A stretch of DNA of 64,000 nucleotides from Alphaproteobacteria bacterium (GTDB taxonomy: Bacteria; Pseudomonadota; Alphaproteobacteria; UBA7985; JAUIBT01), in NCBI GenBank assembly GCA_030428255.1, contig JAUIBT010000001.1:124001-188000 (forward strand), given 5' to 3'. Shown one piece after another: positions 3,281 through 35,632 of the stretch. The notes beneath the pieces are model-generated. The model was not told the DNA's origin. It ran no database searches and saw only the letters and a list, made by a program, of their open reading frames with translations. Position 1 is the first letter of the stretch. Each line of letters opens with the position of its first letter. The position numbers and the translations under genes are program-made.

Positions 3281-4230
3281 GCGGCTTCGCGCAGGGGGTG
3301 CCAATCGACTGTTTCGCGCCGCTGGTAGGGCGTGAACCAATCGGGGTCGGTGCGGTATTCAACGCGGCCGTCGGGCCAGATACGCGCAACAGCGCGCCGC
3401 GATGACAGGCAAAAGGCATGCACCGACATGGGCATGCCGCCAGTGTGGCAGTAGCCCACCTCTATGTTGCAGTCGATGACCATGTTCGATCCGACGAAGC
3501 CCATCGCGCCCATGCCGATCGAGTTGCCCAGCGCCGTGAGTTCGTCTTCGAGCGCGGCAATGCGCGGGTCAGAGTTCTTGCTGCCCACCGTGCGCAGTAC
3601 CGAGGCGCGCTTGCCCAAGGTCATGCAGATGTCTTTGGATCCGCCCAAGCCAATGCCGATAATCGCTGGCTGACAGGCCAGGCCCCGCTTACCGAAGGCC
3701 ATCAAGCTGTCGAGGTAAAAGCGCTTGATGCCCTGCATGCCGTCTGAGGGAAACAGCATGCGATAGTCGCTGCCGAACAGGCCGCCCTTGTGCACGCTGA
3801 TCAGGTCGATCCAGTCGCCCTCGGGTTCAAAGCCGTATTCGATTTCTGGTGCGCCAATTCCGACGTTGTTGTTGTGATCGGTGCGCCACAGAGGATGCAC
3901 GCGGTTGGGCCTCAGCGGCACGTCAAAGGTGGCCTGCGCTGTGGCCCGGCGCAAGGCGGCCTCCAACGCGACCATCCCGCCTTCAAGCTGCGCCTCGTTG
4001 CCCAGCTTAACGAACCAGCGCGGCACCCCGGTGTCGCCGCACATGGCGCTGCGGTCCTGCTTCGCGGCCTCGTAGTTATCCAGCATGGCCTGGAGCACGA
4101 AGGACGACAGGTCGCCCTCCTCGCTCTTGGCCGCCCGCTTGAGCCCCTCGTGGTAGTCCTGTGGGATCTCAATGGCCGCCTTTTCCATCAGGGTCTTGGC
4201 CGTATCAAAAACAAGATCGTTAGCGATCAT
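3274..4230 (-). CDS. Class I fumarate hydratase / tartrate dehydratase, alpha subunit
   Basis: The catalytic alpha half of a split class I hydratase that adds water across fumarate-type double bonds using an oxygen-sensitive [4Fe-4S] cluster. From the ATG at 4230 (318 residues), three cysteines sit where cluster ligands are expected: C64 in MCGDTGVP, C186 in ACQPAIIG and C261 in GYCHTGG. The conserved GIGLGGSKD loop is present. The ATG is preferred over a TTG four codons upstream because GGAG lies 5-8 bases before it. The gene is 40 bp downstream of the flavoprotein gene and in the same operon, so product of the complex-II-like enzyme could be hydrated directly. The split form is also used by L(+)-tartrate dehydratase and mesaconase. 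Confidence 0.9.
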   Translation of the reverse strand: MIANDLVFDTAKTLMEKAAIEIPQDYHEGLKRAAKSEEGDLSSFVLQAMLDNYEAAKQDRSAMCGDTGVPRWFVKLGNEAQLEGGMVALEAALRRATAQATFDVPLRPNRVHPLWRTDHNNNVGIGAPEIEYGFEPEGDWIDLISVHKGGLFGSDYRMLFPSDGMQGIKRFYLDSLMAFGKRGLACQPAIIGIGLGGSKDICMTLGKRASVLRTVGSKNSDPRIAALEDELTALGNSIGMGAMGFVGSNMVIDCNIEVGYCHTGGMPMSVHAFCLSSRRAVARIWPDGRVEYRTDPDWFTPYQRRETVDWHPLREAAE

Positions 4231-4270
4231 AGCTAGCTCCAATCCAGCTTAGCGGGCGCGTAAGCTTGGG

Positions 4271-6034
4271 TCACGACGCGGCCACCAGGCTTGCGGGCTC
4301 GCCTGCGGGGATCAGGGTCTCGCCAGGGCGAACGATGCTGAACTCAACCGGCTCGCGCCCCACCTCAACCGAGCCGCCAGCCTGCCGCGCTACGGTGAAA
4401 AAGCTGTCCTCAATCGCCCCAGGCTCGGGGAAGTCTTCGCGAAAGTGCGCGCCCCGTGAATTCTCGCGCGCCAAAGCGGCCTTGGCAATCACCTCGGAAA
4501 TATCGCAAAGCGAGCGCAGGTTCAGCCAGTCGTGCCAGGTCAGATTATAGGCCAGTTGATCCGGGGCAACGCCCACGTCCATCAGCGCGCTCGAGACCTG
4601 AGCGATGCGATCCAGGCCCATTGTCAGACTGGTCTTGGTGCGCGTGACGCCCACATTGTCCCACATGGCGTCCTGCAACTGTTTGCGCAAAGGCAGCACC
4701 AAGTCTGGGCTGCGGGTCAATGGATGGCAGGCGCGAACCAATTCGGCCTCCAGCACGCTCTCATCCGGGTCACGCAGAGCGCCCATTTTACGGATATCCT
4801 GGCCCATGACATCGCCAGCAATACCGCCATAAACGGTCGAGTTCGCCACGCCATTGCCGCCCAGACGGTTCGAGCCATGCGCGCCGCCCGCATCTTCGCC
4901 AGCGACATACAGGCCTTCCAAGGCAGTTCGCGTGTCCACATCCACCACCACGCCGCCCATGAAATAGTGCGCAGTCGGCACCACCTCAACCAGACCAGCG
5001 GCCAGGTCAAAGCCACTGTCCGCGCAGCGCTTGACCATGCCTTTGAATTTCTGGCGCACCAGCTCGGGGCCAAGGTGGCTCATGGAGATGAAGACGCCCT
5101 CTTGGTCGGGGTGGTTGTTCTTGCGCATCTCCGCATAGATACCGCGGCTCACCACATCGCGGGTCGCGCGCTCGCCCTTGGCGTCATAGTCGAACATGAA
5201 GCGCTGCCCAGCGTGGTTGAGCAACTGGCCACCAGCCCCGCGCAAGCCCTCCTCCAGCACCGTGCCGGTCATGCGGGTGTGGTCGCCCGCCAGCAAGCCC
5301 GTGGGGTGAAATTGCACCATCTCCATATCGCGCAACGGCAGGCCGACCCGCAGCGCCATGGCCAGGCCGTCCATGGTCTTATCGCCCGAAGGCGTGTGAT
5401 ACTTGTACATGCTTGGCCCGCCACCGGTGGCCATCAGCACGGTCTTGGCGCGCACGAAACGAAAGCGTCCGCTGCGCATGTCGATCATCAGCACTCCGGC
5501 CAGGGCAGAGCCGTCTTTGGTCGGGATAAGGCCCACCGCGCGGTGTTCTTGCAGCTTTTCAACCGGCCGCGCCAGCACCTGCTCCATCAGCCGGTTGATG
5601 ATCTCGATGCCCGTTAGGTCGCCCTTGTGGACGGTGCGATCAGCGGTCTGCCCGGCGAAGGCCTTTTGGTGCAGGCTGCCGTCGGGGTTGCGATCAAAGA
5701 AGCAGCCGACCTCGTTTTCCAGCTCGCGAATGCGCACCACAGCTTGCTCGCAGAGCCGCCAAGCCATGTCCTGGTTGGGCAGCCACTTGCCGCCCTCGAT
5801 GGTGTCCATGAAATGACGTTCAACGCTGTCGCCCTTGCCCAGCGCTACGTTATAGCCGCCTTGCACCATGCGTGTGCAGCCGCACTTGCCGATCAAGCCT
5901 TTAACCGCGATGGTGACCTTTGTACCCTCGGGCGCTGATTGCAGGGCGTGCAGCGCTGCGAACAGACCAGCCCCGCCAGTGCCGAGGATCAGAATGTCCG
6001 AATCGTGCCGCTCAATATCGCTAACGCGGATCAT
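4271..6034 (-). CDS. Succinate dehydrogenase/fumarate reductase-like flavoprotein subunit with Cys at the flavinylation position
   Basis: A 587-residue FAD subunit of a complex-II-type enzyme that interconverts a succinate-like acid and its enoic partner. The dinucleotide-binding segment is LGTGGAGLFAA (residues 18-28). Residues expected at the dicarboxylate site are present: H243 in QFHPTG, R292 in TRDVVSR, H356 in AHYFMGG and R390 in HGSNRLGGNG. The histidine that normally binds FAD covalently (SHT..QGG) is replaced: the aligned segment reads GKCGCTRMVQGG with Cys53 at that position. FAD is therefore probably non-covalent, which would shift the redox potential and may favour reduction or a different substrate. 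The stop of the membrane-anchor gene lies one base upstream. Family membership is certain; the physiological substrate is not. Confidence 0.9.
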   Translation of the reverse strand: MIRVSDIERHDSDILILGTGGAGLFAALHALQSAPEGTKVTIAVKGLIGKCGCTRMVQGGYNVALGKGDSVERHFMDTIEGGKWLPNQDMAWRLCEQAVVRIRELENEVGCFFDRNPDGSLHQKAFAGQTADRTVHKGDLTGIEIINRLMEQVLARPVEKLQEHRAVGLIPTKDGSALAGVLMIDMRSGRFRFVRAKTVLMATGGGPSMYKYHTPSGDKTMDGLAMALRVGLPLRDMEMVQFHPTGLLAGDHTRMTGTVLEEGLRGAGGQLLNHAGQRFMFDYDAKGERATRDVVSRGIYAEMRKNNHPDQEGVFISMSHLGPELVRQKFKGMVKRCADSGFDLAAGLVEVVPTAHYFMGGVVVDVDTRTALEGLYVAGEDAGGAHGSNRLGGNGVANSTVYGGIAGDVMGQDIRKMGALRDPDESVLEAELVRACHPLTRSPDLVLPLRKQLQDAMWDNVGVTRTKTSLTMGLDRIAQVSSALMDVGVAPDQLAYNLTWHDWLNLRSLCDISEVIAKAALARENSRGAHFREDFPEPGAIEDSFFTVARQAGGSVEVGREPVEFSIVRPGETLIPAGEPASLVAAS

Positions 6035-6035
6035 A

Positions 6036-6392
6036 TCAAATCGCCTGAACTAAGAAGCTGACAGAAACAAGAAACGAGCCCGCCACCGCAGCCGCAGCCA
6101 GAGTTTTCTGCCTGCTTGACCAAGGCAGCCACTCCAGCGCCATCAGCCGCAAGCCGCCAAACATGTGAAGCGCAAGCAAGAAGACCAAACCGAACTCAGC
6201 GAACTTGAACAAGGCCAAATCGGCGAGCGCCAAAAAGCCGTCGAGCTGGGCCGCTTGGTCCAGCGCCAGCGACAGCACCCAAAAGTGCAGCGGCAGGAAC
6301 AGCACCAACCCCAGGCCCGACAGGCGATGCAAGATGTAGGCCAGCCACAAAGGATGCGCGCGCGACATGGTGCGTTTTAGCGCCCTGCTCAT
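6036..6392 (-). CDS. Complex-II-type membrane anchor (SdhC/cytochrome b556-like)
   Basis: A 118-residue protein with three predicted transmembrane helices, about residues 21-41, 60-84 and 98-117. The segment HPLWLAYILHRLSGLGLVL resembles the HRxSG signature of SdhC, where Ser and Arg contribute to the quinone site. A second histidine in LLALHMFGGLRLM is at the position of a heme b ligand. It overlaps the upstream anchor gene by four bases and ends one base before the flavoprotein start, so the four subunits are translationally coupled. Both anchors have SdhC-like features, so naming them C and D would be arbitrary. Confidence 0.8.
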   Translation of the reverse strand: MSRALKRTMSRAHPLWLAYILHRLSGLGLVLFLPLHFWVLSLALDQAAQLDGFLALADLALFKFAEFGLVFLLALHMFGGLRLMALEWLPWSSRQKTLAAAAVAGSFLVSVSFLVQAI

Positions 6393-6742
6393 AGGCTGCC
6401 CCCCATCGTTACCGCCCAGATCGCACGCGCACCGAGCGCAAGCAGCATGAGCGCGATCACGACCGACAGCCCGTCGCGCGCCTTACCACGCAGCCCGGCC
6501 CACTCGCCCAAAATGGCCCGCAAGCCAAGCGCGGTATGAACAGAGACCGCCACGACGAACGTGCCATAAAAAGCGAACCAGGCCAGCGAGCCTTGGGTAC
6601 GCCCCAAGATCTCCGCTGCCGACAAGCCGCCACGAATGGCATAAATCATCACGCCCAGGTGGACGAGCACGAAGGGCACCATCAGCAGGGCGCTGAGTCG
6701 TTGCAGCATATAAAGCCGGAAGTCGAACCGATTGTCTGTCAT
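6389..6742 (-). CDS. Complex-II-type membrane anchor, second subunit
   Basis: A 117-residue integral membrane protein with three predicted helices (about 15-36, 51-75 and 91-113). LYMLQRLSALLMVPFVLVH and VHTALGLRAILGEW resemble the quinone/heme-binding helices of succinate dehydrogenase anchors, each with one histidine able to ligate heme. The ATG at 6742 overlaps the iron-sulfur gene stop (ATGA), which fixes the start; a longer in-frame extension would lie wholly inside sdhB. Together with the neighbouring anchor it would dock the enzyme in the inner membrane and pass electrons to or from quinone. Confidence 0.78.
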   Translation of the reverse strand: MTDNRFDFRLYMLQRLSALLMVPFVLVHLGVMIYAIRGGLSAAEILGRTQGSLAWFAFYGTFVVAVSVHTALGLRAILGEWAGLRGKARDGLSVVIALMLLALGARAIWAVTMGGSL

Positions 6743-7500
6743 CGCTTGCGCGCCCCAAAGAACCGCTTGGCACTGGCGCGCTTGAGGCCCGCGATGGCCG
6801 ATACGGGGTCCAGCGCATTGGGGCAATAGGCGGTGCACGACCCGATCGAATGGCAGCTATGGCAACCGCCCTTAGCAGTAACGGCATCCAAGACCGCCTC
6901 AGGGTCGGCCTCTTTGGCATCGTTGTACAGCGTCCAAGCCCGCTGCAGCGCGGCTGGCCCCAAATAGTCCGGATCGCCCGCCACCGTATCACAGGCCGCA
7001 TAGCAAACCGCGCAGTTGATGCATTCGATTGCCGCATCGGCGATCTGTCGTTCTGGGCTATCCGGGTCTATGGCTGCAATCGGATCGTCGCGGGTTTGGC
7101 TGGGGTGATGGCGCGCCTCGGCCGCGCCCCACTTGTCAAAGAAGGCGTCCATGTCGGTGACCAAGTCCTTGATCACCGGAAGATTGCGCAAAGGAGCCAG
7201 CTCCATAGCGCCGCCCTTGGCAACCTTGCTGACGTGGGTGCGGCAGGTCCAGCGCGGCACGCCGTTGACCATCATCGCACAGGAGCCGCACATGCCAACC
7301 CGGCAGGCAAAGCGATAGCTGACCGAAGGGTCGGCGTTTTGCTGAATCCAAGACACCACATCAAGCACGGTTTGCTTGTCATAGGCTGGAACGTCGAAAG
7401 TCTGACGGTAGGACGCACCGTCGGGGCCGCCACGCTCCAGGGTTACGCTCAGTTTTTCGCCGTCTGCTCTGGTTCGACTTGGCACCACTGGCTGTGACAC
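6739..7500 (-). CDS. sdhB: Succinate dehydrogenase/fumarate reductase iron-sulfur subunit
   Basis: A 253-residue electron-transfer subunit and first gene of the operon. It has an N-terminal plant-type ferredoxin domain with the [2Fe-2S] cysteines in CRVGMCGSC plus WTCR. The C-terminal domain carries CINCAVCYAAC and CHSCHSIGSC..YCP for the [4Fe-4S] and [3Fe-4S] clusters. The start is a GTG at 7500 with AGAGGTAGG about 10 bases upstream. It overlaps the next anchor gene by 4 bp. Gene order B-anchor-anchor-A differs from the common CDAB order, suggesting a paralogous or specialised complex rather than the housekeeping one. No other sdh genes are in this window. Confidence 0.88.
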   Translation of the reverse strand: MSQPVVPSRTRADGEKLSVTLERGGPDGASYRQTFDVPAYDKQTVLDVVSWIQQNADPSVSYRFACRVGMCGSCAMMVNGVPRWTCRTHVSKVAKGGAMELAPLRNLPVIKDLVTDMDAFFDKWGAAEARHHPSQTRDDPIAAIDPDSPERQIADAAIECINCAVCYAACDTVAGDPDYLGPAALQRAWTLYNDAKEADPEAVLDAVTAKGGCHSCHSIGSCTAYCPNALDPVSAIAGLKRASAKRFFGARKR

Positions 7501-7687
7501 GTCCGGGCCTACCTCTTATCACCAACTATCAAGGCCCACCCTAAGCGTCAGCGTCATTAACGAAAAGGGAATTTTGTTAAACGTTTCTGTAAGGTTTTGT
7601 TTCTATACAGGCCAACAGGACGGCCTTGTTTCGCCAAGACCAGCATCCACATCGTGGCCCGCACCCAAGGCGCGCGCCGCTGCGCAG

Positions 7688-26505: not shown

Positions 26506-27570
26506 CTAGGCTGCCGAACGTTCGCGCGCCATGCGCTCGACTTCGCGCATGACCATGCCATACAGATCGCGAGGCTCGTCCGGGTCTGCGATCATGTCCA
26601 AATCAGTAAAGCGACCGCTGAGCTGCAAGGCGTCGCGCAACCAGCGCAAGGCCGAAAAGTCCTCAATCGCAAAGCCGACGCCATCGAACAGCGTCAGGGC
26701 GTCCTGGCTCTCGCGGCCCGCTACGGCGCCGGTCAAGACCTGCCACAGCTCCTTGACGGGATAGTCTGCGTCGAGCTGTTGGATCTCGCCTTCGATGCGG
26801 GTCTGCTCGGGATACTCGACGAAAATATCGCTGCGCAGCAAGACATCGCGGTGCAATTCGGTCTTGCCGGGGCAATCGCCGCCGATGGCGTTGATGTGCT
26901 GACCGCTGCCGACCATGTTGTCCGACAAGATGGTGGCGTACTGTTTGTCAGCGGTGCAGGTGGTGATGACCTGAGCCCCTTCCACGGCCGCTTGAGCGCT
27001 GTCGCAAATCACGATTTCCAGGCCAGAATTGGCCAAGTTCCTCGCACACTTCTCACTGGCGCTGCGATCAACATCGAACAAACGCACCTTGGTGATGCCG
27101 CACATGGCTTTCAGGGCCAGCGCCTGAAATTCAGACTGCGCGCCGTTGCCGATCAGGGCCAACGTCGTTGAGCCTTGGGGAGCCAGCGCCCGCGTAGCGA
27201 CCGCTGAAGTCGCTGCCGTGCGCAGGGCCGTCAGCAAGGTCATCTCTGTCATTAGGACCGGATAGCCAGTATCAACCGAGGCCAAGAGGCCGAAGGCCGT
27301 CACCGTCTGCAAGCCGTCGCGGGTGTTCTTGGGATGGCCGTTGACGTACTTAAAGCTGTAGTCCACGCCGTCTGAGGTCGGCATCAGCTCGATCACGCCC
27401 TCATGCGAGTGAGAGGCGACGCGCGGGATTTTGTCGAAGCGTTCCCACTTGGCGAAGTCTTCTTCGATATAGGCAGCGATCTGCTCAATGCAGGTCTCTA
27501 CCCCCAGATCGAGGACAAGGCGCATCATGTTCTCGACGCTGACAAAAGGAACGGTGTTGAGTGATTTCAT
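26506..27570 (-). CDS. ocd: Ornithine cyclodeaminase
   Basis: A 354-residue enzyme of the ornithine cyclodeaminase/mu-crystallin family converting L-ornithine to L-proline and ammonia with tightly bound NAD. Visible are the substrate-site region DGVDYSFKYVNGHP, the LTALRTAATSAVAT segment, and the nucleotide motif ALIGNGAQSEFQ. It is at the long end for the family and matches ornithine-specific members. GGAG lies 7-10 bases upstream of the ATG. Arginase is 33 bp upstream on the same strand: arginine to ornithine to proline. Confidence 0.92.
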   Translation of the reverse strand: MKSLNTVPFVSVENMMRLVLDLGVETCIEQIAAYIEEDFAKWERFDKIPRVASHSHEGVIELMPTSDGVDYSFKYVNGHPKNTRDGLQTVTAFGLLASVDTGYPVLMTEMTLLTALRTAATSAVATRALAPQGSTTLALIGNGAQSEFQALALKAMCGITKVRLFDVDRSASEKCARNLANSGLEIVICDSAQAAVEGAQVITTCTADKQYATILSDNMVGSGQHINAIGGDCPGKTELHRDVLLRSDIFVEYPEQTRIEGEIQQLDADYPVKELWQVLTGAVAGRESQDALTLFDGVGFAIEDFSALRWLRDALQLSGRFTDLDMIADPDEPRDLYGMVMREVERMARERSAA

Positions 27571-27603
27571 TGGGTTGCTCCGTCGAAGAAAGCGAAAGAA
27601 TGA

Positions 27604-28530
27604 CTAGGCGGCAACGGTAATACGGCGGCCAAACAGGCTGGCGGTCAGATCAACCAACAGCTTGGCAGAGGTGCCCGCATGATCCAGGAAAGGGTTGAGC
27701 TCGACCAAATCCAAAGACCGCATCAAGCCGGATTCGAAGATCAGCTCCATGATCAGGTGGGCTTCGCGCTCGCTTGCACCGCCTGGAACAGGCGTGCCGA
27801 CGCCGGGCGCAATGCCGGGATCAAGGAAATCGAGATCCAAACTCACGTGCAACCAGCCGTTGGCATCTGACACGCGCTCCAAGAAGGTGCGAAACGGACG
27901 GACAATGCCATGCTCATCGATCGAGCGCATGTCGTGAATCCACATGTCGGTTTTGGCCAGCGCGCACCGTTCATCGCGATCGACCGAGCGCAGGCCCAAA
28001 ATGCCGACCTGCCCCTGTGGCACAGGTTGGGCAAGCGGCGGGAAGTAGCCCTCAAAGCCAGGCTTGCCGGTCAGATAGGCCAAGGGTGTGCCGTGCAGGT
28101 TGCCGCTCTCGGTGGTGTCCAGTGTGTGGTAGTCCGAGTGCGCGTCTAGCCACAATACGAACAAAGGACGCTCGGCTTTGAGCGCTGCGGCCTGCATGCC
28201 CGCAACACTGCCAGCCGACAGCGCGTGGTCGCCGCCCATAAAGACCGGTACGCCGCCTTGATTAGCCAGCGCTTCGGCCTTGGCTGCGATTGCGGCAGTC
28301 CAAGCGGCCACTTCTGGCAGGGAATAGAGCGCGGCATTTGGGTGCGCGGCCACGCTTGGGTTCTTTGGCGCCTCAACGTCGCCTGCGTCCTGGCAGGTCA
28401 GGCCCAGGTCCTCCAGCGCGGTTTGCAATCCTGCCGTGCGCAGCGCTTCAGGGCCCATAATCGTTCCGCGACGGCGCGCGCCTTGGTGCAGGGCAAGCCC
28501 TAGCAGATGGCAGTCAACAGCAGAGTTCAC
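27604..28530 (-). CDS. Arginase
   Basis: A 308-residue manganese ureohydrolase splitting arginine to ornithine and urea. Mn ligands are visible in GGDHALSAG, WLDAHSDYHT and SLDLDFLDPG. The substrate-binding segment SGNLHGTPLAYL is arginase-like. I start at a GTG (28530) with AGGAG seven bases upstream, because the 39-residue in-frame extension would run through the regulator's operator region. First gene of the arginase-ocd operon, facing an Lrp-type regulator. Agmatinase is less likely given ocd next door. Confidence 0.9.
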   Translation of the reverse strand: MNSAVDCHLLGLALHQGARRRGTIMGPEALRTAGLQTALEDLGLTCQDAGDVEAPKNPSVAAHPNAALYSLPEVAAWTAAIAAKAEALANQGGVPVFMGGDHALSAGSVAGMQAAALKAERPLFVLWLDAHSDYHTLDTTESGNLHGTPLAYLTGKPGFEGYFPPLAQPVPQGQVGILGLRSVDRDERCALAKTDMWIHDMRSIDEHGIVRPFRTFLERVSDANGWLHVSLDLDFLDPGIAPGVGTPVPGGASEREAHLIMELIFESGLMRSLDLVELNPFLDHAGTSAKLLVDLTASLFGRRITVAA

Positions 28531-28605
28531 AAAGGCTCCTATGAGCAAGCGGTGATGGTTGGCGCCAAAATGTCGAATTATTTGGAAAGCGAACAGCCTA
28601 CATGT

Positions 28606-28620
28606 TATGCAATTTGCATA
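28606..28620. promoter_or_regulatory. Perfect 15-bp palindrome between arginase and Lrp-type genes
   Basis: TATGCAA T TTGCATA, a perfect 7-1-7 inverted repeat. It lies 22 bases before the regulator ATG and 76 bases before the arginase GTG. Length, AT-rich centre and divergent location fit a binding site of the adjacent Lrp/AsnC-type protein that would control both genes. Confidence 0.6.
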
Positions 28621-28641
28621 GAAGTTTTTACGAATTGACAA

Positions 28642-29076
28642 ATGCAATCGCCCACTTTGGACAAACTAGATCTGGAACTCATCGAACTGTTGCGTCGCGA
28701 TGGTCGCGCTTCGCTGGCGACCTTGGCCGGACAACTTAAGGTCACCCGCGCGACAGTACGCGCACGCATGGAGCGCTTGCAAGCCAACGGCAAGATCCTC
28801 AGCTTTACAGTCAAGCTCGATAGCGACTTGGGTCGCCCCCAAGTCTCAGGCATCACCTTGGTGAAGATTCTGGGTCATAAGACCGGTCGCATCGTTCAAC
28901 AATTGCGTTTGATTGAGGAGGTGCAAGACATCTATTCGACTAATGGCAAGTGGGACTTGCTAGTCGAGATTGCGGCCCCCAACCTTGAGCGGTTTGACCG
29001 GGCGCTGGACGCCATGCGCGCGATTGACGGCATTGCCGAGTCCGAAACGAACTTACGCCTCGCCGCCAAGCGTTGA
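28642..29076 (+). CDS. Lrp/AsnC-family regulator (likely arginine catabolism)
   Basis: A 144-residue regulator with an N-terminal HTH (LDLELIELLRRDGRASLATL, then LKVTRATVRARMERL) and a C-terminal RAM domain. It is divergent from arginase-ocd with a perfect palindrome between them. By analogy with ArgR/PutR-type Lrp proteins of alphaproteobacteria, it probably activates arginase and ocd when arginine or ornithine is present. The start is supported by the canonical TLDKLDLELIELL spacing; Shine-Dalgarno is weak. Confidence 0.88.
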   Translation: MQSPTLDKLDLELIELLRRDGRASLATLAGQLKVTRATVRARMERLQANGKILSFTVKLDSDLGRPQVSGITLVKILGHKTGRIVQQLRLIEEVQDIYSTNGKWDLLVEIAAPNLERFDRALDAMRAIDGIAESETNLRLAAKR

Positions 29077-29155
29077 AGGCTGCGTGACCGGGGAAAAAAG
29101 CTATACAAAGGCCTTGCATCGCGCGTCGCCATGTATTAGCAAGCTGTCACACATC

Positions 29156-29173
29156 GTGTTAGCACGCTAACAC
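29156..29173. promoter_or_regulatory. Perfect palindrome, candidate operator of the TrpR-like/his operon
   Basis: GTGTTAGC AC GCTAACAC, a perfect 8-2-8 inverted repeat 29 bases before the TrpR-like start. The size and the TAG..CTA half-sites resemble the layout of TrpR operators. There is no T run after it, so it is not a terminator. It is placed to repress the regulator and the his genes together. Confidence 0.6.
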
Positions 29174-29202
29174 ACCAACATTCAGCACAATCCGAGCCCC
29201 GC

Positions 29203-29538
29203 ATGCCAAATCGGCCCCAACCCCAGACCGCCAGCTACGGTGATCTACGCTTGCACGACCTCAGCCAGGCCCTTGCCGAGTGCCGGGGCGCAGACGAGAT
29301 TCAGCGGTTCTTGATCGACCTCTGTTCGCCCGCCGAGCTGCGCGCGCTGGCCGAGCGCTGGCATGTGGCACGGCTTTTGGATGAAGGCCGCCTCTCGTAT
29401 CGGCAAATCAGCGACATGACCGGGGTCTCCACCACGACCATCGGTCGCGTCGCGCGCTTCTTGACCAACGAACCGCATCAAGGCTACCGCCTGGTGCTCG
29501 ATCGCTTGGGTCACACCACCACAGATCAGCGCAGCTAA
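29203..29538 (+). CDS. TrpR-like (YerC/YecD-type) DNA-binding protein heading the his operon
   Basis: A 111-residue protein of the TrpR/YerC superfamily. Helices in residues 17-60 include FLIDLCSPAELRALAERWHV, and the HTH is SYRQISDMTGVSTTTIGRV (about 65-83). It starts 36 bp before hisG on the same strand and has a perfect palindrome directly upstream. YerC-type proteins are known near histidine genes in Firmicutes; here the context strongly suggests a histidine-responsive repressor, by analogy to TrpR and tryptophan. The co-repressor is an inference. Confidence 0.85.
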   Translation: MPNRPQPQTASYGDLRLHDLSQALAECRGADEIQRFLIDLCSPAELRALAERWHVARLLDEGRLSYRQISDMTGVSTTTIGRVARFLTNEPHQGYRLVLDRLGHTTTDQRS

Positions 29539-29573: not shown

Positions 29574-30461
29574 ATGGACACCCAACGCCTTAGGATTGCC
29601 ATCCAAAAATCGGGCCGCATGGCCGAAGGCTCGAACGAGCTGCTGCAGGCCGCTGGCTTGCGCCTGCCCTCGCGCTCTAAGACCACGCTGTTTCAGCGCG
29701 CCCGAAACCTGCCCATCGATCTGCTGTTGGTGCGCGACGACGACATCCCGCACTTCGTTGCGACGGGCGTTGCGGACATCGGCATCGTGGGCGAAAACGT
29801 CTACGCCGAATGGCAGCTCGACGCCCCCGAAGCGCCGGTATCTTTGGTGCGTCGCTTGGGCTTTTCCTTCTGCCGCCTTTGCCTGGCCACACCGAAGGAC
29901 GGTCCCCTACGCTCGCCCAAAGATCTGGAGGGAAAGAGCCTCGCCACCTCCTACCCCTTGATTTTGCAACGCTATTTCGACGAGCAAGGCATCAACGCCA
30001 GCATCATGCAGATGTCGGGTTCGGTTGAGGTTGCGCCCAAACTGGGCATTGCCGACGGCATTTTCGACATCGTGTCCTCAGGCGCGACTTTGGAGGCCAA
30101 CGGCCTGGGGACCATCGCCGACGTTTTCCACTCAGAGGCCTTGATAATCCAAACCGAAAAAGCCCTGAGCGAAGATAAAGCCAGCATCCTGGCGCGCCTG
30201 CTGACGCGCATCGAGTGTGTCCAAGCCTCGCGGCAAATCAAGTACCTCATGCTGAACGCGCCCCAGTCCAAACTGGCCGCCATCACCAACCTGTTGCCGG
30301 GTGCGGATGCACCAACCGTGCTGCCGCTGCAAGGCAAGGGCGACATGGTGGCGATCCACGCCGTTGTTCAGGATGCCGACCTGTGGGAAACGCTGGAGAA
30401 GCTTAAAGCCGAGGGCGCAAGCTCGATCCTGGTAACACCAATTGAAAAGATGATGGCCTGA
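29574..30461 (+). CDS. hisG: ATP phosphoribosyltransferase, long form
   Basis: The first enzyme of histidine synthesis, joining ATP and PRPP; usually feedback-inhibited by histidine. 295 residues, which is the long form with a C-terminal regulatory ACT-like domain (about 225-295, ending VTPIEKMMA), so no HisZ partner is needed. Catalytic-domain markers are LRIAIQKSGRMAEGS, GVADIGIVGENVY and DIVSSGATLEANGL. An AGGA precedes the ATG. The stop overlaps the hisCB start by one base (TGATG). Confidence 0.95.
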   Translation: MDTQRLRIAIQKSGRMAEGSNELLQAAGLRLPSRSKTTLFQRARNLPIDLLLVRDDDIPHFVATGVADIGIVGENVYAEWQLDAPEAPVSLVRRLGFSFCRLCLATPKDGPLRSPKDLEGKSLATSYPLILQRYFDEQGINASIMQMSGSVEVAPKLGIADGIFDIVSSGATLEANGLGTIADVFHSEALIIQTEKALSEDKASILARLLTRIECVQASRQIKYLMLNAPQSKLAAITNLLPGADAPTVLPLQGKGDMVAIHAVVQDADLWETLEKLKAEGASSILVTPIEKMMA

Positions 30462-32098
30462 TGTCTTTTGATGCACGATCTTTGGCGCGCCCTTGGTTGT
30501 TGGACGCCGCAGCCTACGTCGGTGAGCGCGAGCTGTACGGCCAGGACGGCCTGACTTTGCTGGATATGAACGAGAACCCTAACGGCGGCAATGGCGGCCT
30601 GAACCGCTATCCCGGGCCCGAGGTGCGCGCGCTCTATGCCCGCATGGCCCGGCTCTATGACCGGCCCGAGGACAATCTAATGATCTCGCCAGGCTCGGAT
30701 GAAGCCATCGGCATGCTGATTCGTGCCTTTTGTGCGCCCGGTGAGCACAGCATCGTCATCAATCCGCCCACCTTCGGCATGTATGCGCTCAGCGCCAAGG
30801 TGAATGGCGTCGCCAGCGTCGCGGTGCCCATGTTGGAGCGCGGTCGCATTGACTGGGACGCCCTGAACGCGGCGGCAGATGGTAACGCCAACGCTCGGCT
30901 GATCTTCTTGTGCACGCCGCAAAATCCCTGTGGCACCGCCGTCCCGCGTGACCAGATCATCGCTTTTGCCCGCCGCCAAGCCGGCCGCATTGTCGTGGTG
31001 GATGAAGCCTACCAAGAATTCGCGAATCAAGAGAGCCTGATCGCGGAGACCGGGCTGCCCAACCTGGTTGTGCTGCGCACGCTGTCAAAGGCTTATGCCC
31101 TAGCGGGCGCACGCATCGGCTGCCTAATCTCCTCGGCCGAAATCGTCAAGATCGTCAAGGCATTGCAAGGCCCCTACGCCCTGCCCACGCCCTCGGTCAA
31201 GGCCGCGCTGGAGGCTCTGAGCCCTGCGGGCATGGCCCAGTCTGCGCGTCAAATCGCCGAACTCAAGGCCGAACGGGACCGATTGTCCGCTGCTCTGAGC
31301 CAACACGATGACGTACTAGAAGTGTTCGACAGCCAGGCCAACTTCTTGTTCATCATCATGGACAAGGCCGAGGTCTGGCATCAAGAGCTGCTGAAGACCT
31401 ACGGCATTTTGCTGCGCAATCAAACCAAGGCGTTGGCGGGCGGACTGCGCATCTCGGTCGGCACGCCTGAGGAAAACGACGGCCTACTGCAAGCCCTGGG
31501 CTTGGCACCTGCGCCCAAACCCGACCGCAAGGCCGAGCTGAAACGCGAGACCAAAGAGACCAGCATTTACTGCGCGGTTAATCTGGACAAGCCCGGCCCC
31601 TCGCGCTGCGAGACCGGCGTCGGCTTCTTTGATCACATGCTGGACCAGCTCACCAAGCACTCCGGCATCGCCATGATCATCAAGACAGAAGGCGACACCC
31701 ACATCGACACCCACCACACGGTCGAAGATACCATGATCGCGCTGGGACAGGTTCTGGATCAAGCCGTGGGCGACAAGCGTGGTATCCTGCGCTATGGCCA
31801 CTTCGATTTGGTGATGGACGAGGCCCGCGCAACGGCAGCCATCGACCTGTCAGGCCGCGCCCACGCCAGTTTCGAGGGCAGCTTTAAGGCTGATGCCCTG
31901 GGCGGGCTGCAAACCGAAATGGTGGCGCACTGCATCCAATCTCTGGCTGAAAAGCTGCGCGCAACCATTCATGTCACGGTGACCGGCGACAACGACCACC
32001 ACAAGTGCGAAGCCGTGTTCAAGGCTCTGGCCAGAGCACTGAAAATGGCGGTCAGGGTCGAAGGCGACGCGCTGCCCAGCACGAAAGGACTTTTGTGA
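30461..32098 (+). CDS. hisCB: HisC-HisB fusion: histidinol-phosphate aminotransferase / imidazoleglycerol-phosphate dehydratase
   Basis: A 545-residue bifunctional protein. Residues 1-348 form a fold-type I aminotransferase: N155 in NPCG, D181 and Y184 in VVDEAYQ, PLP-lysine K210 in TLSKAYALAG. A short linker (349-361) leads to a complete IGP dehydratase (362-545) with metal motifs HHTVED (418-423) and DNDHHKCEA (510-518). The two domains catalyse consecutive steps, dehydratase then transaminase. There is no intervening stop, start or frameshift. This differs from the enteric HisB, whose dehydratase is fused to histidinol phosphatase. hisH begins on its stop (TGATG). Confidence 0.93.
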   Translation: MSFDARSLARPWLLDAAAYVGERELYGQDGLTLLDMNENPNGGNGGLNRYPGPEVRALYARMARLYDRPEDNLMISPGSDEAIGMLIRAFCAPGEHSIVINPPTFGMYALSAKVNGVASVAVPMLERGRIDWDALNAAADGNANARLIFLCTPQNPCGTAVPRDQIIAFARRQAGRIVVVDEAYQEFANQESLIAETGLPNLVVLRTLSKAYALAGARIGCLISSAEIVKIVKALQGPYALPTPSVKAALEALSPAGMAQSARQIAELKAERDRLSAALSQHDDVLEVFDSQANFLFIIMDKAEVWHQELLKTYGILLRNQTKALAGGLRISVGTPEENDGLLQALGLAPAPKPDRKAELKRETKETSIYCAVNLDKPGPSRCETGVGFFDHMLDQLTKHSGIAMIIKTEGDTHIDTHHTVEDTMIALGQVLDQAVGDKRGILRYGHFDLVMDEARATAAIDLSGRAHASFEGSFKADALGGLQTEMVAHCIQSLAEKLRATIHVTVTGDNDHHKCEAVFKALARALKMAVRVEGDALPSTKGLL

Positions 32099-32691
32099 TG
32101 CAACGTGTTGCGCTCATCAACTCCGGCTGCGCCAACATCGCCTCGGTCCGCTATGCCCTGCTGCGTCAAGGCGTCGAGGTGGATGTTACAGCCGACCCCG
32201 AACGCATCATCAACGCCGATAAGGTGATCTTTCCAGGCGTTGGCAGCTTTGACTACGCCCTGGAGGCGGTGAAGAAGAGCGGTGTCGTTGAGGCCATGCG
32301 CGACTTAACCCAACCCACGCTCGGCATTTGCCTGGGCATGCAGATGTTGGCCGAAGCCTCGGCAGAGGGCCAGAAGCCGGGCCTGGGTTTGCTGGCCGGC
32401 AAGGCGCAGCGCTTTGAGGACGAGCCAGGTCGCAGCGTACCGCACATGGGCTGGAACCAGCTCACCCCGGTCGGCGATGACCCGCTGATGGCTGGCATCG
32501 AGCCAGGCTCCTACGTCTACTTCGTGCATTCCTACTACCTGCCGCCTTCGCCCTACACCGTGGCGACCTGCGACTATGGCCAGCCCTTTACGGCCAGCCT
32601 GCACCAGGACAATTTCTGGGGCTGCCAGTTCCACCCCGAACTGTCGTCCGATGTGGGTGCCAAGATCTTGGCTAACTTCCTGGCCCTGTAG
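32098..32691 (+). CDS. hisH: Imidazole glycerol phosphate synthase, glutaminase subunit
   Basis: A 197-residue class I glutamine amidotransferase supplying ammonia to HisF. The oxyanion strand is PGVGSF, the nucleophile lies in GICLGMQML, and the His-Glu of the triad is in FHPELSSDVG. The ATG overlaps the hisCB stop by one base. The stop codon sits inside a 13-bp tandem duplication. Confidence 0.95.
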   Translation: MQRVALINSGCANIASVRYALLRQGVEVDVTADPERIINADKVIFPGVGSFDYALEAVKKSGVVEAMRDLTQPTLGICLGMQMLAEASAEGQKPGLGLLAGKAQRFEDEPGRSVPHMGWNQLTPVGDDPLMAGIEPGSYVYFVHSYYLPPSPYTVATCDYGQPFTASLHQDNFWGCQFHPELSSDVGAKILANFLAL

Positions 32692-32711
32692 TCTGGCCCT
32701 GTAGTCTGGCC
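32680..32711. repeat. 13-bp tandem duplication across the hisH stop codon
   Basis: CTGGCCCTGTAGT occurs at 32680-32692 and again at 32693-32705, followed by a third partial copy (CTGGCC). The hisH TAG is in the first copy and is repeated 13 bases later. It occupies part of the 74-bp gap before hisA. Confidence 0.92.
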
Positions 32712-32765
32712 ATCTAAGCTGATACAAAGTCTGACCCAATTCGACCTTTAAGCGACTGAAGCAAC

Positions 32766-33497
32766 ATGATTTTATACCCCGCAATGGACCTGATCGACGG
32801 CAAATGCGTGCGCCTGTCCAAAGGCAAGTTCGACGCCAAAACCGAATACAACGACGACCCCCGCGCTCAGGCCAAATCCTTCGCAGACCAAGGCGCGACC
32901 TGGTTGCACGTCGTGGACCTGGACGGCACCAAGGCGGGCGCACCCCTGCAAGCGGCCTTCATCCAGGCCAGCGTCGAGGGGCTGGGCTTGAAGGTCCAGA
33001 CCGGTGGCGGCATTCGCTCTCTTGACTCGGCGCGGCAGGTGCTGGACGCAGGCATCGACCGCGTGGTGATCGGCTCCTTGTCGGTCGCCCAGCCCGAAGC
33101 CATGGGCAGGCTGGTCCAAGACTACGGCAGCGAGCGCGTTGTGGCCGCCCTTGATCTGGTGATGCAAGACGGCGCGCCCTTCATCGCGACCCACGGCTGG
33201 CAGTCGGTGTCCGATAAGCCGCTGGCTTGGGCCTGTCAGACCATGATCGATCAGGGCGTGAGCCATATTTTGATGACGGATATCTCCAAGGATGGCCTGT
33301 TGCAGGGCCCCAACGTGGCGCTCTATCAGCAAGCTGCTCAGGACTTCCCACAGCTCAAGATCCAAGCCTCGGGCGGCGTGTCCAGCTTGGACGACCTGCG
33401 CCAGCTCACCAGCAGCGGCGCGGACGGCGTGATCGTCGGCAAGGCCATTTATGAAAAGCGCTTTACAGTCGCTGAAGCCCTGGAGGTCTTATGCTGA
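32766..33497 (+). CDS. hisA: ProFAR isomerase
   Basis: A 243-residue (beta/alpha)8 barrel isomerising ProFAR to PRFAR. The catalytic Asp pair is in the first strand ([14 protein letters not shown]) and in [10 protein letters not shown]. Phosphate loops TGGGIRS and SGGVSS are present. Its 3' end overlaps hisF by seven bases. Confidence 0.95.
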
Positions 33498-34258
33498 GCC
33501 GTCGCATTATTCCCTGTTTGGACGTGGCCGACGGCAAGGTCGTCAAGGGCGTGCAGTTTAAGAACCACGAGATCGTGGGTGAGATTGTTGACCTGTCCCA
33601 GCGCTATGTCGATGAAGGGGCGGATGAGCTGGTCTTCTATCACATAACTGCTTCAGCCGATGGTCAAACCGTCAATCTGGATTGGGTGGACGCCGTGGCC
33701 CAGCGCCTGGACATCCCCTTTTGCGTCGCTGGCGGCATTCGCAGCGTGGCCGACGCAGCCGCGCGCCTGGAAGCTGGCGCCGACAAGATATCCATCAACT
33801 CGCCCGCGCTGGAGCGCCCAGATTTCATTGACGAGATGGTGGCGGCTTTTGGCAGCCAATGCGTGGTGATCGGCATCGACAGCTTGGAGGTCGATGGCCA
33901 GTATCAGGTCAAGCAATACACCGGCCGCCCGGATAAGATGCAAGACTCGCGCCGCGATACCTTGACTTGGGCCAAAGAGGCTGTCGAGCGCGGAGCGGGT
34001 GAAATCGTGCTGAACTGCATGAACCAAGATGGCGTGCGTCAGGGTTACGACATCCGCCAGTTGGCCGCAGTGCGCGCCGCGGTTTCAGTGCCTTTGATCG
34101 CCAGCGGCGGTGCGGGCAAGCAAGAGCATTTCAAAGAGGTGTTCGAGCAAGCAGATGTTGACGGCGCGCTGGCGGCCTCCGTCTTCCACAAGCGGATTAT
34201 CCCCATCCCCGAACTTAAGGCCTGGCTGAGCAGCCAAGGCCAACCCATGCGGCTCTAG
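33491..34258 (+). CDS. hisF: Imidazole glycerol phosphate synthase, cyclase subunit
   Basis: A 255-residue barrel paralogous to HisA that uses ammonia from HisH to form IGP and AICAR. Catalytic Asp residues lie in [14 protein letters not shown] and LNCMNQDG; phosphate sites are CVAGGIRS and ASGGAG. It ends the visible his operon. hisD, hisI/E and histidinol phosphatase are absent and must be elsewhere. Confidence 0.95.
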
Positions 34259-34288: not shown

Positions 34289-35509
34289 TTAGCGCACTGA
34301 GCGCGGCAGAAGGTAGGCGTCCTTGGGCACGGGGTCCAGGTTGCTCCAGCGGTGCTGGGCCACGGCCTCGTCGATCATGTGATTGAGAAGATCCGGGAAG
34401 GTAAAGGGCGTGGCCGCGCGCTCCCACAAAAAGAAGGCAAACGAGCCCGGTATGGGATTGATTTCGTTAAAGAACAGCTCTCCGCTGGTCTGGTCGAACA
34501 GGTAGTCTAAACGCGGCACGCCCACGTTGCCGAATAGGGTGTAGACCGTCTTGGCGTGGTCGCGGATTTTGGCCTCAAGGTCTGCGGGCAGATCGGGGTT
34601 GATGTCGCGCGTCATCGACAACATACCGCCCGAACCAGTATCGCCTGGGGTCTTGACACCGCCGCCCTTTTTGCCACCGCCACCGCCAGCCAGATACTTT
34701 TCTTTGAAGTCCAGCAGCTCGCCAGATTGCTTGGGCCGCTCAATCGCTGAGGTCAGGATTTCGCCGTCCCTATTTAGAACCGACACGTTGAACTCGGCCA
34801 GATTCTGAACGGCAGGCTCGACCATCACCTGGGGGTCTTGGGCAAAGATGCTGGGCAGAACTTCCAGCAATTCCTGGTGGTCTTTGACCAACGCAACGCC
34901 AATCGATGAGCCCAATGAGCACGGCTTGACGATAGCCGGGAAGAAATTGTCAGACACCTGCGCCTTGATGCTGTCCAGCGGCAGGATGCGGCCGCGCTGG
35001 GGCTTGGTCAGCACCACATGCGGCAGCACGGGCACGCCCGCGCGCTCGGCCAGGTCTTTGGTCAGGTCTTTGCGCATGGCCAGCGCCGATCCGGTCGCGC
35101 GCAGTCCGGTATAGGGCACGCCCGCCATATCCATGCGCGACTGCACGCGGCCATCTTCGCCTTCAAGGCCATGGAAGGCCAGCACTGCGGCTTTGACCAG
35201 GATCGGGTCGCGCTGGTTCAAGCCATCGGCGTCGCGCAACAGCGCTGGGCCGTAGTTCGGCAAATTGTAGAAGTGGCAAGACTGAGCGCCCACCATCGCC
35301 AGGGGATGGGGGCGATAGGAGCCGCGCAACCCTAGGCCTGGTCCGGTAAAGAACCGCCGATCCCAAGCCAAATAGGCCGGTACGGGCTCATAGCGATCCC
35401 GGTCTATTGCGTCCATGACTTGCAGACCAGTGACCACTGATACGTCGTGTTCGGGCGATGGACCGCCAAAGCAGACGGCAATCTTCTTTTTGGGCTGAGT
35501 TTGGCTCAT
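34289..35509 (-). CDS. ddl: D-alanine--D-alanine ligase with a glycine-lysine-rich insertion
   Basis: A 406-residue ATP-grasp ligase making D-Ala-D-Ala for peptidoglycan. Visible are AVCFGGPSPEHDVSV, the ATP site PAIVKPCSLGSSIGV, the Tyr-bearing omega loop DFKEKYL and the metal ligands in FFNEINPIPG. Directly after the omega loop (about 274-296) comes an unusual GGGGGKKGGG-containing stretch. Ddl proteins are normally 300-370 residues. The EKY loop favours D-Ala rather than D-lactate as acceptor. The upstream region carries a 14-bp tandem repeat. It is convergent with hisF. Confidence 0.9.
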   Translation of the reverse strand: MSQTQPKKKIAVCFGGPSPEHDVSVVTGLQVMDAIDRDRYEPVPAYLAWDRRFFTGPGLGLRGSYRPHPLAMVGAQSCHFYNLPNYGPALLRDADGLNQRDPILVKAAVLAFHGLEGEDGRVQSRMDMAGVPYTGLRATGSALAMRKDLTKDLAERAGVPVLPHVVLTKPQRGRILPLDSIKAQVSDNFFPAIVKPCSLGSSIGVALVKDHQELLEVLPSIFAQDPQVMVEPAVQNLAEFNVSVLNRDGEILTSAIERPKQSGELLDFKEKYLAGGGGGKKGGGVKTPGDTGSGGMLSMTRDINPDLPADLEAKIRDHAKTVYTLFGNVGVPRLDYLFDQTSGELFFNEINPIPGSFAFFLWERAATPFTFPDLLNHMIDEAVAQHRWSNLDPVPKDAYLLPRSVR

Positions 35510-35520
35510 GCGGGCGCTCT

Positions 35521-35567
35521 GGCGGGTGAATTGGGGCGGGTGGATTGGGGCGGGTGAATTGGGGCGG
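35521..35567. repeat. 14-bp tandem repeat upstream of ddl
   Basis: Three adjacent copies of GGCGGGTGAATTGG (35521-35534, 35535-35548 with one change, 35549-35562) plus GGCGG. It begins 12 bases upstream of the ddl ATG, so it lies in the leader or promoter and could influence ribosome access. Confidence 0.92.
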
Positions 35568-35632
35568 ACCAAAGAGGTCGGGGTGTTGCTGGCGGTGTTA
35601 GCATGGCAGGCCAGAGCCTCCAAGACCTAAGC

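What the first reader, a model, noticed from the sequence alone, without database searches (positions are those of the whole stretch)
30461..32098. HisC-HisB gene fusion catalysing two consecutive histidine steps
One continuous 545-codon frame joins a complete aminotransferase and a complete IGP dehydratase through a ~13-residue linker; all catalytic residues are present. The dehydratase product (imidazole-acetol phosphate) is the direct aminotransferase substrate, so channelling is possible. The well-known HisB fusion is to the phosphatase instead. IGP dehydratase forms 24-mers, so the fusion would create a very large HisC-decorated assembly.
Basis: partly seen in the sequence, partly recalled or inferred. 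Interest (0 to 1): 0.6.

Follow-up and report, generated by a model that had tools for sequence, protein, structure and literature searches.

The report
Recurrent HisC–HisB histidine enzyme fusion
One gene makes a two-headed enzyme for two consecutive steps of histidine synthesis; the same join arose at least three separate times in bacteria, each time among relatives that carry a different, textbook partner (a phosphatase) on the second enzyme, and in some lineages the first half is now decaying.

Summary
ORF 30461-32098 is one intact 545-aa frame holding a full histidinol-phosphate aminotransferase (HisC) and a full IGP dehydratase (IGPD), 8-15 residues apart. It is no assembly error: two congeners share it at 83% identity under purifying selection. 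It holds the genome's only IGPD and only strong HisC, in a hisR-hisG-hisCB-hisH-hisA-hisF operon.

The architecture is uncommon but recurrent: 10 of 208 IGPD-bearing genomes sampled from the window's class (probably Alphaproteobacteria) and 5 of 71 from a Bacteroidales order. AU tests reject a single origin; at least three are needed. The fusions belong to E. coli-type his operons, whose unfused members keep hisC beside hisNB, so the likely route is loss of the HisN phosphatase domain and joining of HisC to IGPD. In four fusions the HisC half has lost its PLP lysine, and each of those genomes has a separate HisC; among eight genomes with an intact fused HisC none has a second one above 270 bits.

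Channelling and a HisC-decorated 24-mer are possible but untested; the decayed cases show the fusion can persist without channelling. No paper found describes a hisC fusion. New variant of a known kind.

The parts
30461..32098 (+). hisCB fusion gene, 545 aa plus TGA stop
   Evidence: single open frame; conserved in two congeners
30461..31498 (+). HisC half, aa 1-346; PLP lysine K210
   Evidence: TIGR01141 277.9 bits, aa 16-346; residues
31499..31531 (+). linker, aa 347-357
   Evidence: between HisC and HisB model ends; alignment of fusions; no ATG or GTG start in the junction, one TTG at 31502
31532..32095 (+). IGPD half, aa 358-545, with both HHxxE metal motifs
   Evidence: PF00475 187 bits; ligands
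29574..30461 (+). hisG, long form; its stop overlaps the hisCB start by 1 nt
   Evidence: TIGR00070 179 bits and TIGR03455 99.5 bits; overlap
32098..32691 (+). hisH; ATG overlaps the hisCB stop by 1 nt
   Evidence: TIGR01855 213 bits; junction DNA
32766..33497 (+). hisA
   Evidence: TIGR00007 237 bits, over cut-off
33491..34258 (+). hisF
   Evidence: TIGR00735 334.5 bits, over cut-off
29203..29538 (+). hisR-like (YerC/TrpR family) regulator, first gene of the operon
   Evidence: PF01371 74 bits; TIGR02531 57.4 bits over 42.2
29132..29151 (+). candidate HisR operator TGTATTAGCAAGCTGTCACA
   Evidence: 1 mismatch to the published proteobacterial HisR motif; DNA binding not tested

Best explanation
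hisCB encodes a genuine bifunctional enzyme. The IGPD half makes imidazole-acetol phosphate (step 6) and the HisC half transaminates it to histidinol phosphate (step 7). It arose inside an E. coli-type his operon in which hisC directly preceded or overlapped hisNB: the HisN phosphatase domain was lost and HisC was joined in frame to IGPD, with step 8 then served by an unlinked phosphatase. Shown by sequence: the fusion, completeness of both halves, selection, single copy, kinship with NB-type operons, and recurrence with at least three origins. Inferred: both activities, the deletion route, the replacement phosphatase, and assembly as an IGPD 24-mer with HisC dimers on its outer face (24 chains could give 12 dimers, about 1.4 MDa). 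The main effect is most likely co-production and tethering of two consecutive enzymes at a fixed 1:1 ratio; direct channelling is optional and unproven.
For: Both domains complete with catalytic residues and modelled at mean pLDDT 94.2. Only IGPD and only HisC over cut-off in the genome, the next aminotransferase at 107 bits. Purifying selection on both halves. Fusions lie in E. coli-type operons and group with NB-type IGPDs and operons. Unfused relatives keep hisC beside hisNB, in L042 with a 4-nt overlap. Same architecture with intact residues in other genera and in Bacteroidales. Where the HisC half is dead a separate HisC exists. The N-terminal sheet of IGPD is on the outside of the 24-mer (PMC10978614).
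Against: No activity, expression or native-mass data. The HisC score is only 1.4 bits over its cut-off. The phosphatase candidate at C26 scores 246 bits, below its 275 cut-off. No HisN remnant was found that would prove the deletion route. The number of origins inside the window's class is unresolved.
Confidence: 0.8

Rival explanations
1. Neutral by-product: loss of a redundant HisN domain between overlapping hisC and hisNB genes welded the two remaining enzymes together. Both halves still work, but tethering gives no gain; the fusion is merely tolerated and can decay.
For: Adjacent or overlapping hisC-hisNB in unfused relatives; linkers of 12-47 residues with no common sequence; four fusions with a degenerate HisC half and a separate HisC; sporadic distribution.
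Against: At least three origins and retention in three congeners do not demand but are compatible with selection; no test here separates the two.
Confidence: 0.45
2. Channelling machine: the fusion is selected because IGPD hands imidazole-acetol phosphate directly to tethered HisC on a large 24-mer assembly.
For: Consecutive steps (established pathway knowledge); repeated origin; outward N-terminus of IGPD.
Against: Dead HisC halves persist in four fusions; linker length and sequence vary; no kinetic or structural data.
Confidence: 0.2
3. The HisC half is already non-functional or has another role, and histidinol-phosphate transamination is done by a generic aminotransferase.
For: HisC domain just over the TIGR01141 cut-off; seven other aminotransferase matches in the genome; decay documented in relatives.
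Against: All tested catalytic residues present in the window and both congeners; purifying selection, dN/dS 0.07-0.13; no other match above 107 bits.
Confidence: 0.08
4. Assembly or sequencing artefact joining two genes.
For: None found.
Against: The same open frame occurs in two further assemblies of the genus at 83% identity and in other genera and a second phylum.
Confidence: 0.01

Closest known systems
E. coli-type bifunctional HisNB (histidinol-phosphatase/IGPD, NF003937)
   Same: IGPD at the C-terminus with an enzyme of the same pathway fused at its N-terminus, in a his operon of the same gene order; the IGPD half is nearest to this type
   Different: Partner is HisC (step 7) instead of the HisN phosphatase (step 8); the score is 263.8 bits against a cut-off of 443 and no HisN domain is present
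HisC-IGPD fusions of Asticcacaulis biprosthecium and same-class genomes G214, G299, G220, G139, G096, G074, G274, G094
   Same: Same architecture and operon type; IGPD halves cluster
   Different: Most keep hisIE, and some hisD, in the operon; four (A. biprosthecium, G074, G274, G094) have a degenerate HisC half
HisC-IGPD fusions of Bacteroidales (L030/G478, G495, G625, G626, G487)
   Same: Same domain order with intact PLP lysine
   Different: Separate origins; linkers of 17-47 residues; hisD upstream in the operon
Other histidine-pathway fusions: HisIE, HisHF/HIS7, HIS4, the seven-domain Acanthamoeba protein
   Same: Histidine enzymes joined in one chain (PMC1963479, PMC6029752)
   Different: None includes HisC; hisC is not named among the fused genes in PMC1963479
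CobBC (NF053748), a fused protein with a HisC-like domain
   Same: A HisC-family aminotransferase domain in a bifunctional protein
   Different: Cobalamin pathway; HisC-like domain at the C-terminus; no IGPD; listed far below its cut-off

Membership tests
Histidinol-phosphate aminotransferase (HisC, TIGR01141) | Score over the curated cut-off of the equivalog model | tested here: met
   277.9 bits against 276.55, a narrow pass
Histidinol-phosphate aminotransferase (HisC, TIGR01141) | PLP lysine and cofactor/substrate-binding residues | tested here: met
   K210, N155, D181, Y184, S209, R218, R330, Y19, Y50, R319
Histidinol-phosphate aminotransferase (HisC, TIGR01141) | Transaminase activity on imidazole-acetol phosphate; homodimer | not testable with these tools
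   needs assay
Imidazoleglycerol-phosphate dehydratase (IGPD, PF00475) | Complete domain over the gathering score | tested here: met
   187 bits against 27, profile 1-144
Imidazoleglycerol-phosphate dehydratase (IGPD, PF00475) | Mn-binding His/Glu ligands (two HHxxE motifs and further His) | tested here: met
   H392, H418, H419, E422, H490, H513, H514, E517
Imidazoleglycerol-phosphate dehydratase (IGPD, PF00475) | 24-mer of 432 symmetry | not testable with these tools
   known for the family (PMC10978614); not shown for the fusion
Bifunctional HisNB (NF003937) | N-terminal HAD phosphatase domain and score over cut-off | tested here: not met
   263.8 bits against 443; match starts at profile position 165
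E. [quoted passage not shown]
   G-CB-H-A-F present in order; hisD (C23) and hisIE (C44) lie elsewhere and HisN is absent
E. [quoted passage not shown]
   IGPD and concatenated operon trees
HisR regulon | hisR-like gene with a HisR-type palindrome upstream of the his operon | tested here: met
   TIGR02531 57.4 bits over 42.2; box 29132-29151 with 1 mismatch; DNA binding not tested

The most novel reading that the evidence does not exclude
HisC-IGPD is a recurrent, convergent alternative to HisNB, selected because it joins consecutive steps 6 and 7 on a 24-mer core carrying 12 HisC dimers with substrate handover; in some lineages the HisC half then became a non-catalytic part of IGPD, giving a natural series from enzyme to pseudo-enzyme domain.
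Probability: 0.2. Interest if true: 0.7.

Novelty: new variant of a known kind. Interest (0 to 1): 0.5.

Why it matters
Histidine biosynthesis is the classic model for gene fusion and operon evolution, and HisC is absent from the fusions listed in the papers read here. A fusion of consecutive steps that arose repeatedly, with unfused sister operons and decayed members in hand, makes it directly testable whether such fusions are selected for channelling or are by-products of deletion between adjacent genes. It also matters for annotation: none of the NCBIfam matches listed for this protein is a model of the HisC+IGPD architecture (best 25 shown).

Tried and rejected
Assembly artefact: rejected by congeners. 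Other long IGPD frames in the class sample (G223, G234, G292, G231, G068): fetched; no HisC match in the frame, so stop-free extension and not fusion. Tandem loci reported as one continuous match (L032-L036, L038): separate hisC and hisB ORFs. Single origin of all fusions: not rejected on IGPD alone (p = 0.18), rejected with operon data (p = 1.3e-5) and with HisC+IGPD (p about 1e-92). Fusion on plasmids: the 15 best records are two-piece hisC plus hisNB matches; the other 659 were not listed. Literature searches found no hisC-hisB fusion.

Full report
What is there. The frame at 30461-32098 (+) is 545 codons plus stop without interruption. aa 16-346 match HisC (TIGR01141, 277.9 bits, just over the cut-off) and aa 385-527 match the whole IGPD model (PF00475, 187 bits); HisB models begin at aa 354-358. 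The tested catalytic and metal-binding residues of both enzymes are present. An AlphaFold2 model has mean pLDDT 94.2. By sequence the best solved relatives are HisC of E. coli and Klebsiella and separate IGPD entries; no listed chain covers both halves. By fold the 50 best matches are HisC-type aminotransferases.

Surroundings. The operon is hisR-like (29203), long-form hisG (29574), hisCB (30461), hisH (ATG 32098), hisA (32766), hisF (33491). hisG/hisCB and hisCB/hisH each overlap by 1 nt. A HisR-type palindrome with one mismatch to the published proteobacterial motif lies 51 nt before the hisR-like gene. hisD (C23), hisIE (C44) and a TIGR02067-like phosphatase (C26, 246 bits, below the 275 cut-off) are elsewhere. 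The genome has one IGPD and one HisC match over cut-off, the next at 107 bits. So, as far as sequence tells, the fusion supplies both steps.

Not an artefact. Two congeners (G001, G002) carry the fusion at 83% identity; dN/dS is 0.07-0.13 for HisC and 0.03-0.04 for IGPD (synonymous sites are near saturation, so the values are rough). Of the eight held genomes of the same order outside the genus, seven have an ordinary short IGPD frame and one has no match.

How common. In a class-wide sample 208 of 289 genomes have IGPD. IGPD frames over 450 aa were traced and fetched. Ten of the 208 have a HisC-derived N-terminal half in frame: G000, G002, G214, G299, G220, G139, G096 (cut by the contig end), and G074, G274, G094 with degenerate halves; for G094 the half is so eroded that its HisC origin rests on the alignment and position alone. 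Asticcacaulis biprosthecium (L031) and G001 bring the set to twelve. In a Bacteroidales order, 5 of 71 IGPD-bearing genomes have the fusion: G478 (the MAG of L030), G495, G625, G626, G487. In the phylum sample the list was cut at the lower scores, and two long frames (G346 457 aa, G459 500 aa) were not examined. That the window's class is Alphaproteobacteria is an inference from kinship with A. biprosthecium; the tools hide names.

Origin. In the IGPD tree the twelve class fusions form a 100/95 group (with one HisNB row, L042, inside) within the radiation of HisNB-type IGPDs of Gammaproteobacteria and Bacteroidota, away from ordinary same-class HisB. Operon trees place the class fusions with gammaproteobacterial NB operons and L030 within Bacteroidota. 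A single origin for all fusions is rejected (p = 1.3e-5; p about 1e-92), although IGPD alone cannot reject it (p = 0.18). The five Bacteroidales fusions are not one clade (p = 2e-10 on the operon; p = 0.0046 on HisC+IGPD); on HisC+IGPD, G495/G626 and L030/G487 pair up. I therefore claim at least three origins; the operon tree would allow five. The AU tests that reject used quick LG+G4 trees, and the groups were chosen by architecture. Whether the class fusions had one origin is not settled, since the operon tree splits them with weak support. Unfused relatives keep hisC next to hisNB, in L042 with a 4-nt ATGA overlap, so loss of the HisN domain with in-frame joining is the simplest route. No HisN match was found in the fused frames searched.

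Decay. In A. biprosthecium, G074, G274 and G094 the HisC half has lost the PLP lysine (F, L, L, deleted) and other residues, while all IGPD metal ligands remain. Each of these genomes has a separate HisC, of 321, 296, 302 and 272 bits (the last is just under the cut-off). Of the eight genomes with an intact fused HisC (window, G001, G002, G214, G299, G220, G139, G478) none has a second HisC above 270 bits; G214 has one at 242, the rest at most 117. G220 and G139 have the PLP-contacting Asn replaced (A, S), so 'intact' there means lysine and most residues kept. G074/G274 and the three congeners are close relatives, so the independent contrasts are fewer. The pattern fits a fused HisC that is essential only where it is the sole HisC.

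Mechanism. Shown: architecture, conservation, single copy, kinship, recurrence, and decay with compensation. Inferred: both activities, and outward placement of HisC on an IGPD 24-mer (the N-terminal sheet of IGPD is external, PMC10978614), where 24 chains could form 12 HisC dimers of about 1.4 MDa in all. Channelling remains a hypothesis; linkers of 12-47 residues and dead halves speak against a strict requirement.

Literature. PMC1963479 names hisD, B, N, I, E, F and H as genes that fused and does not mention hisC. PMC8305728 reports hisNB in all Bacteroidetes it studied and no hisC fusion in the passages read. PMC6029752 reports a seven-domain protein without HisC or IGPD. Searches found no description of HisC-HisB, but only open-licence full text was searched, and protein databases probably list the architecture automatically.

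Noticed in passing
L031 5974-7446 (+); L138 within 4030-5706 (+); L140 within 4885-7626 (-); L141 4918-6414 (-): Fused HisC halves that have lost the PLP lysine next to an intact IGPD: a natural series of pseudo-enzyme decay, each with a separate HisC elsewhere in the genome.
   Followed up: partly
window 29132-29538: HisR-like (YerC/TrpR family) gene with a HisR-type palindrome 51 nt upstream heads the his operon; a YerC-like gene also sits beside most of the class fusions and L042.
   Followed up: partly
L179 769-2274 (-): In the Bacteroidales genome G626 one 502-aa frame matches HisA (11-245) and then HisF (245-493): a possible HisA-HisF fusion in the same operon as a HisC-IGPD fusion.
   Followed up: no
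L139 5450-7201 (-) and G139:C2:897999-898430: G139 has both a HisC-IGPD fusion and a separate short IGPD frame of 186 aa.
   Followed up: no
L042 713-5466 (+): Gammaproteobacterial MAG with YerC-hisG-hisD-hisC-hisNB, hisC and hisNB overlapping by ATGA; its IGPD nests among the class fusions, a likely picture of the pre-fusion state.
   Followed up: partly
L137 3443-7969: The operon of G220 runs hisG-hisCB-hisA-hisF-hisI with no hisH or hisD match in the fetched stretch.
   Followed up: no
window 32680-32765: The hisH-hisA gap, otherwise an exception in a tightly packed operon, holds short tandem copies of TCTGGCCCTGTAG.
   Followed up: no
window 26506-29076: By eye only, no family search: an ornithine-cyclodeaminase-like and an arginase-like gene on the minus strand, next to an Lrp/AsnC-like regulator on the plus strand (28642).
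   Followed up: no
window 34289-35623 (-): By eye only: a D-Ala-D-Ala-ligase-like protein with a glycine-rich insertion (GGGGGKKGGGVKTPGDTGSGG).
   Followed up: no
G000:C23:86275-87492, C6:54494-55708, C56:94125-95342: Three histidinol-dehydrogenase-family genes in the genome (583, 452 and 441 bits); the roles of the second and third are unknown.
   Followed up: no
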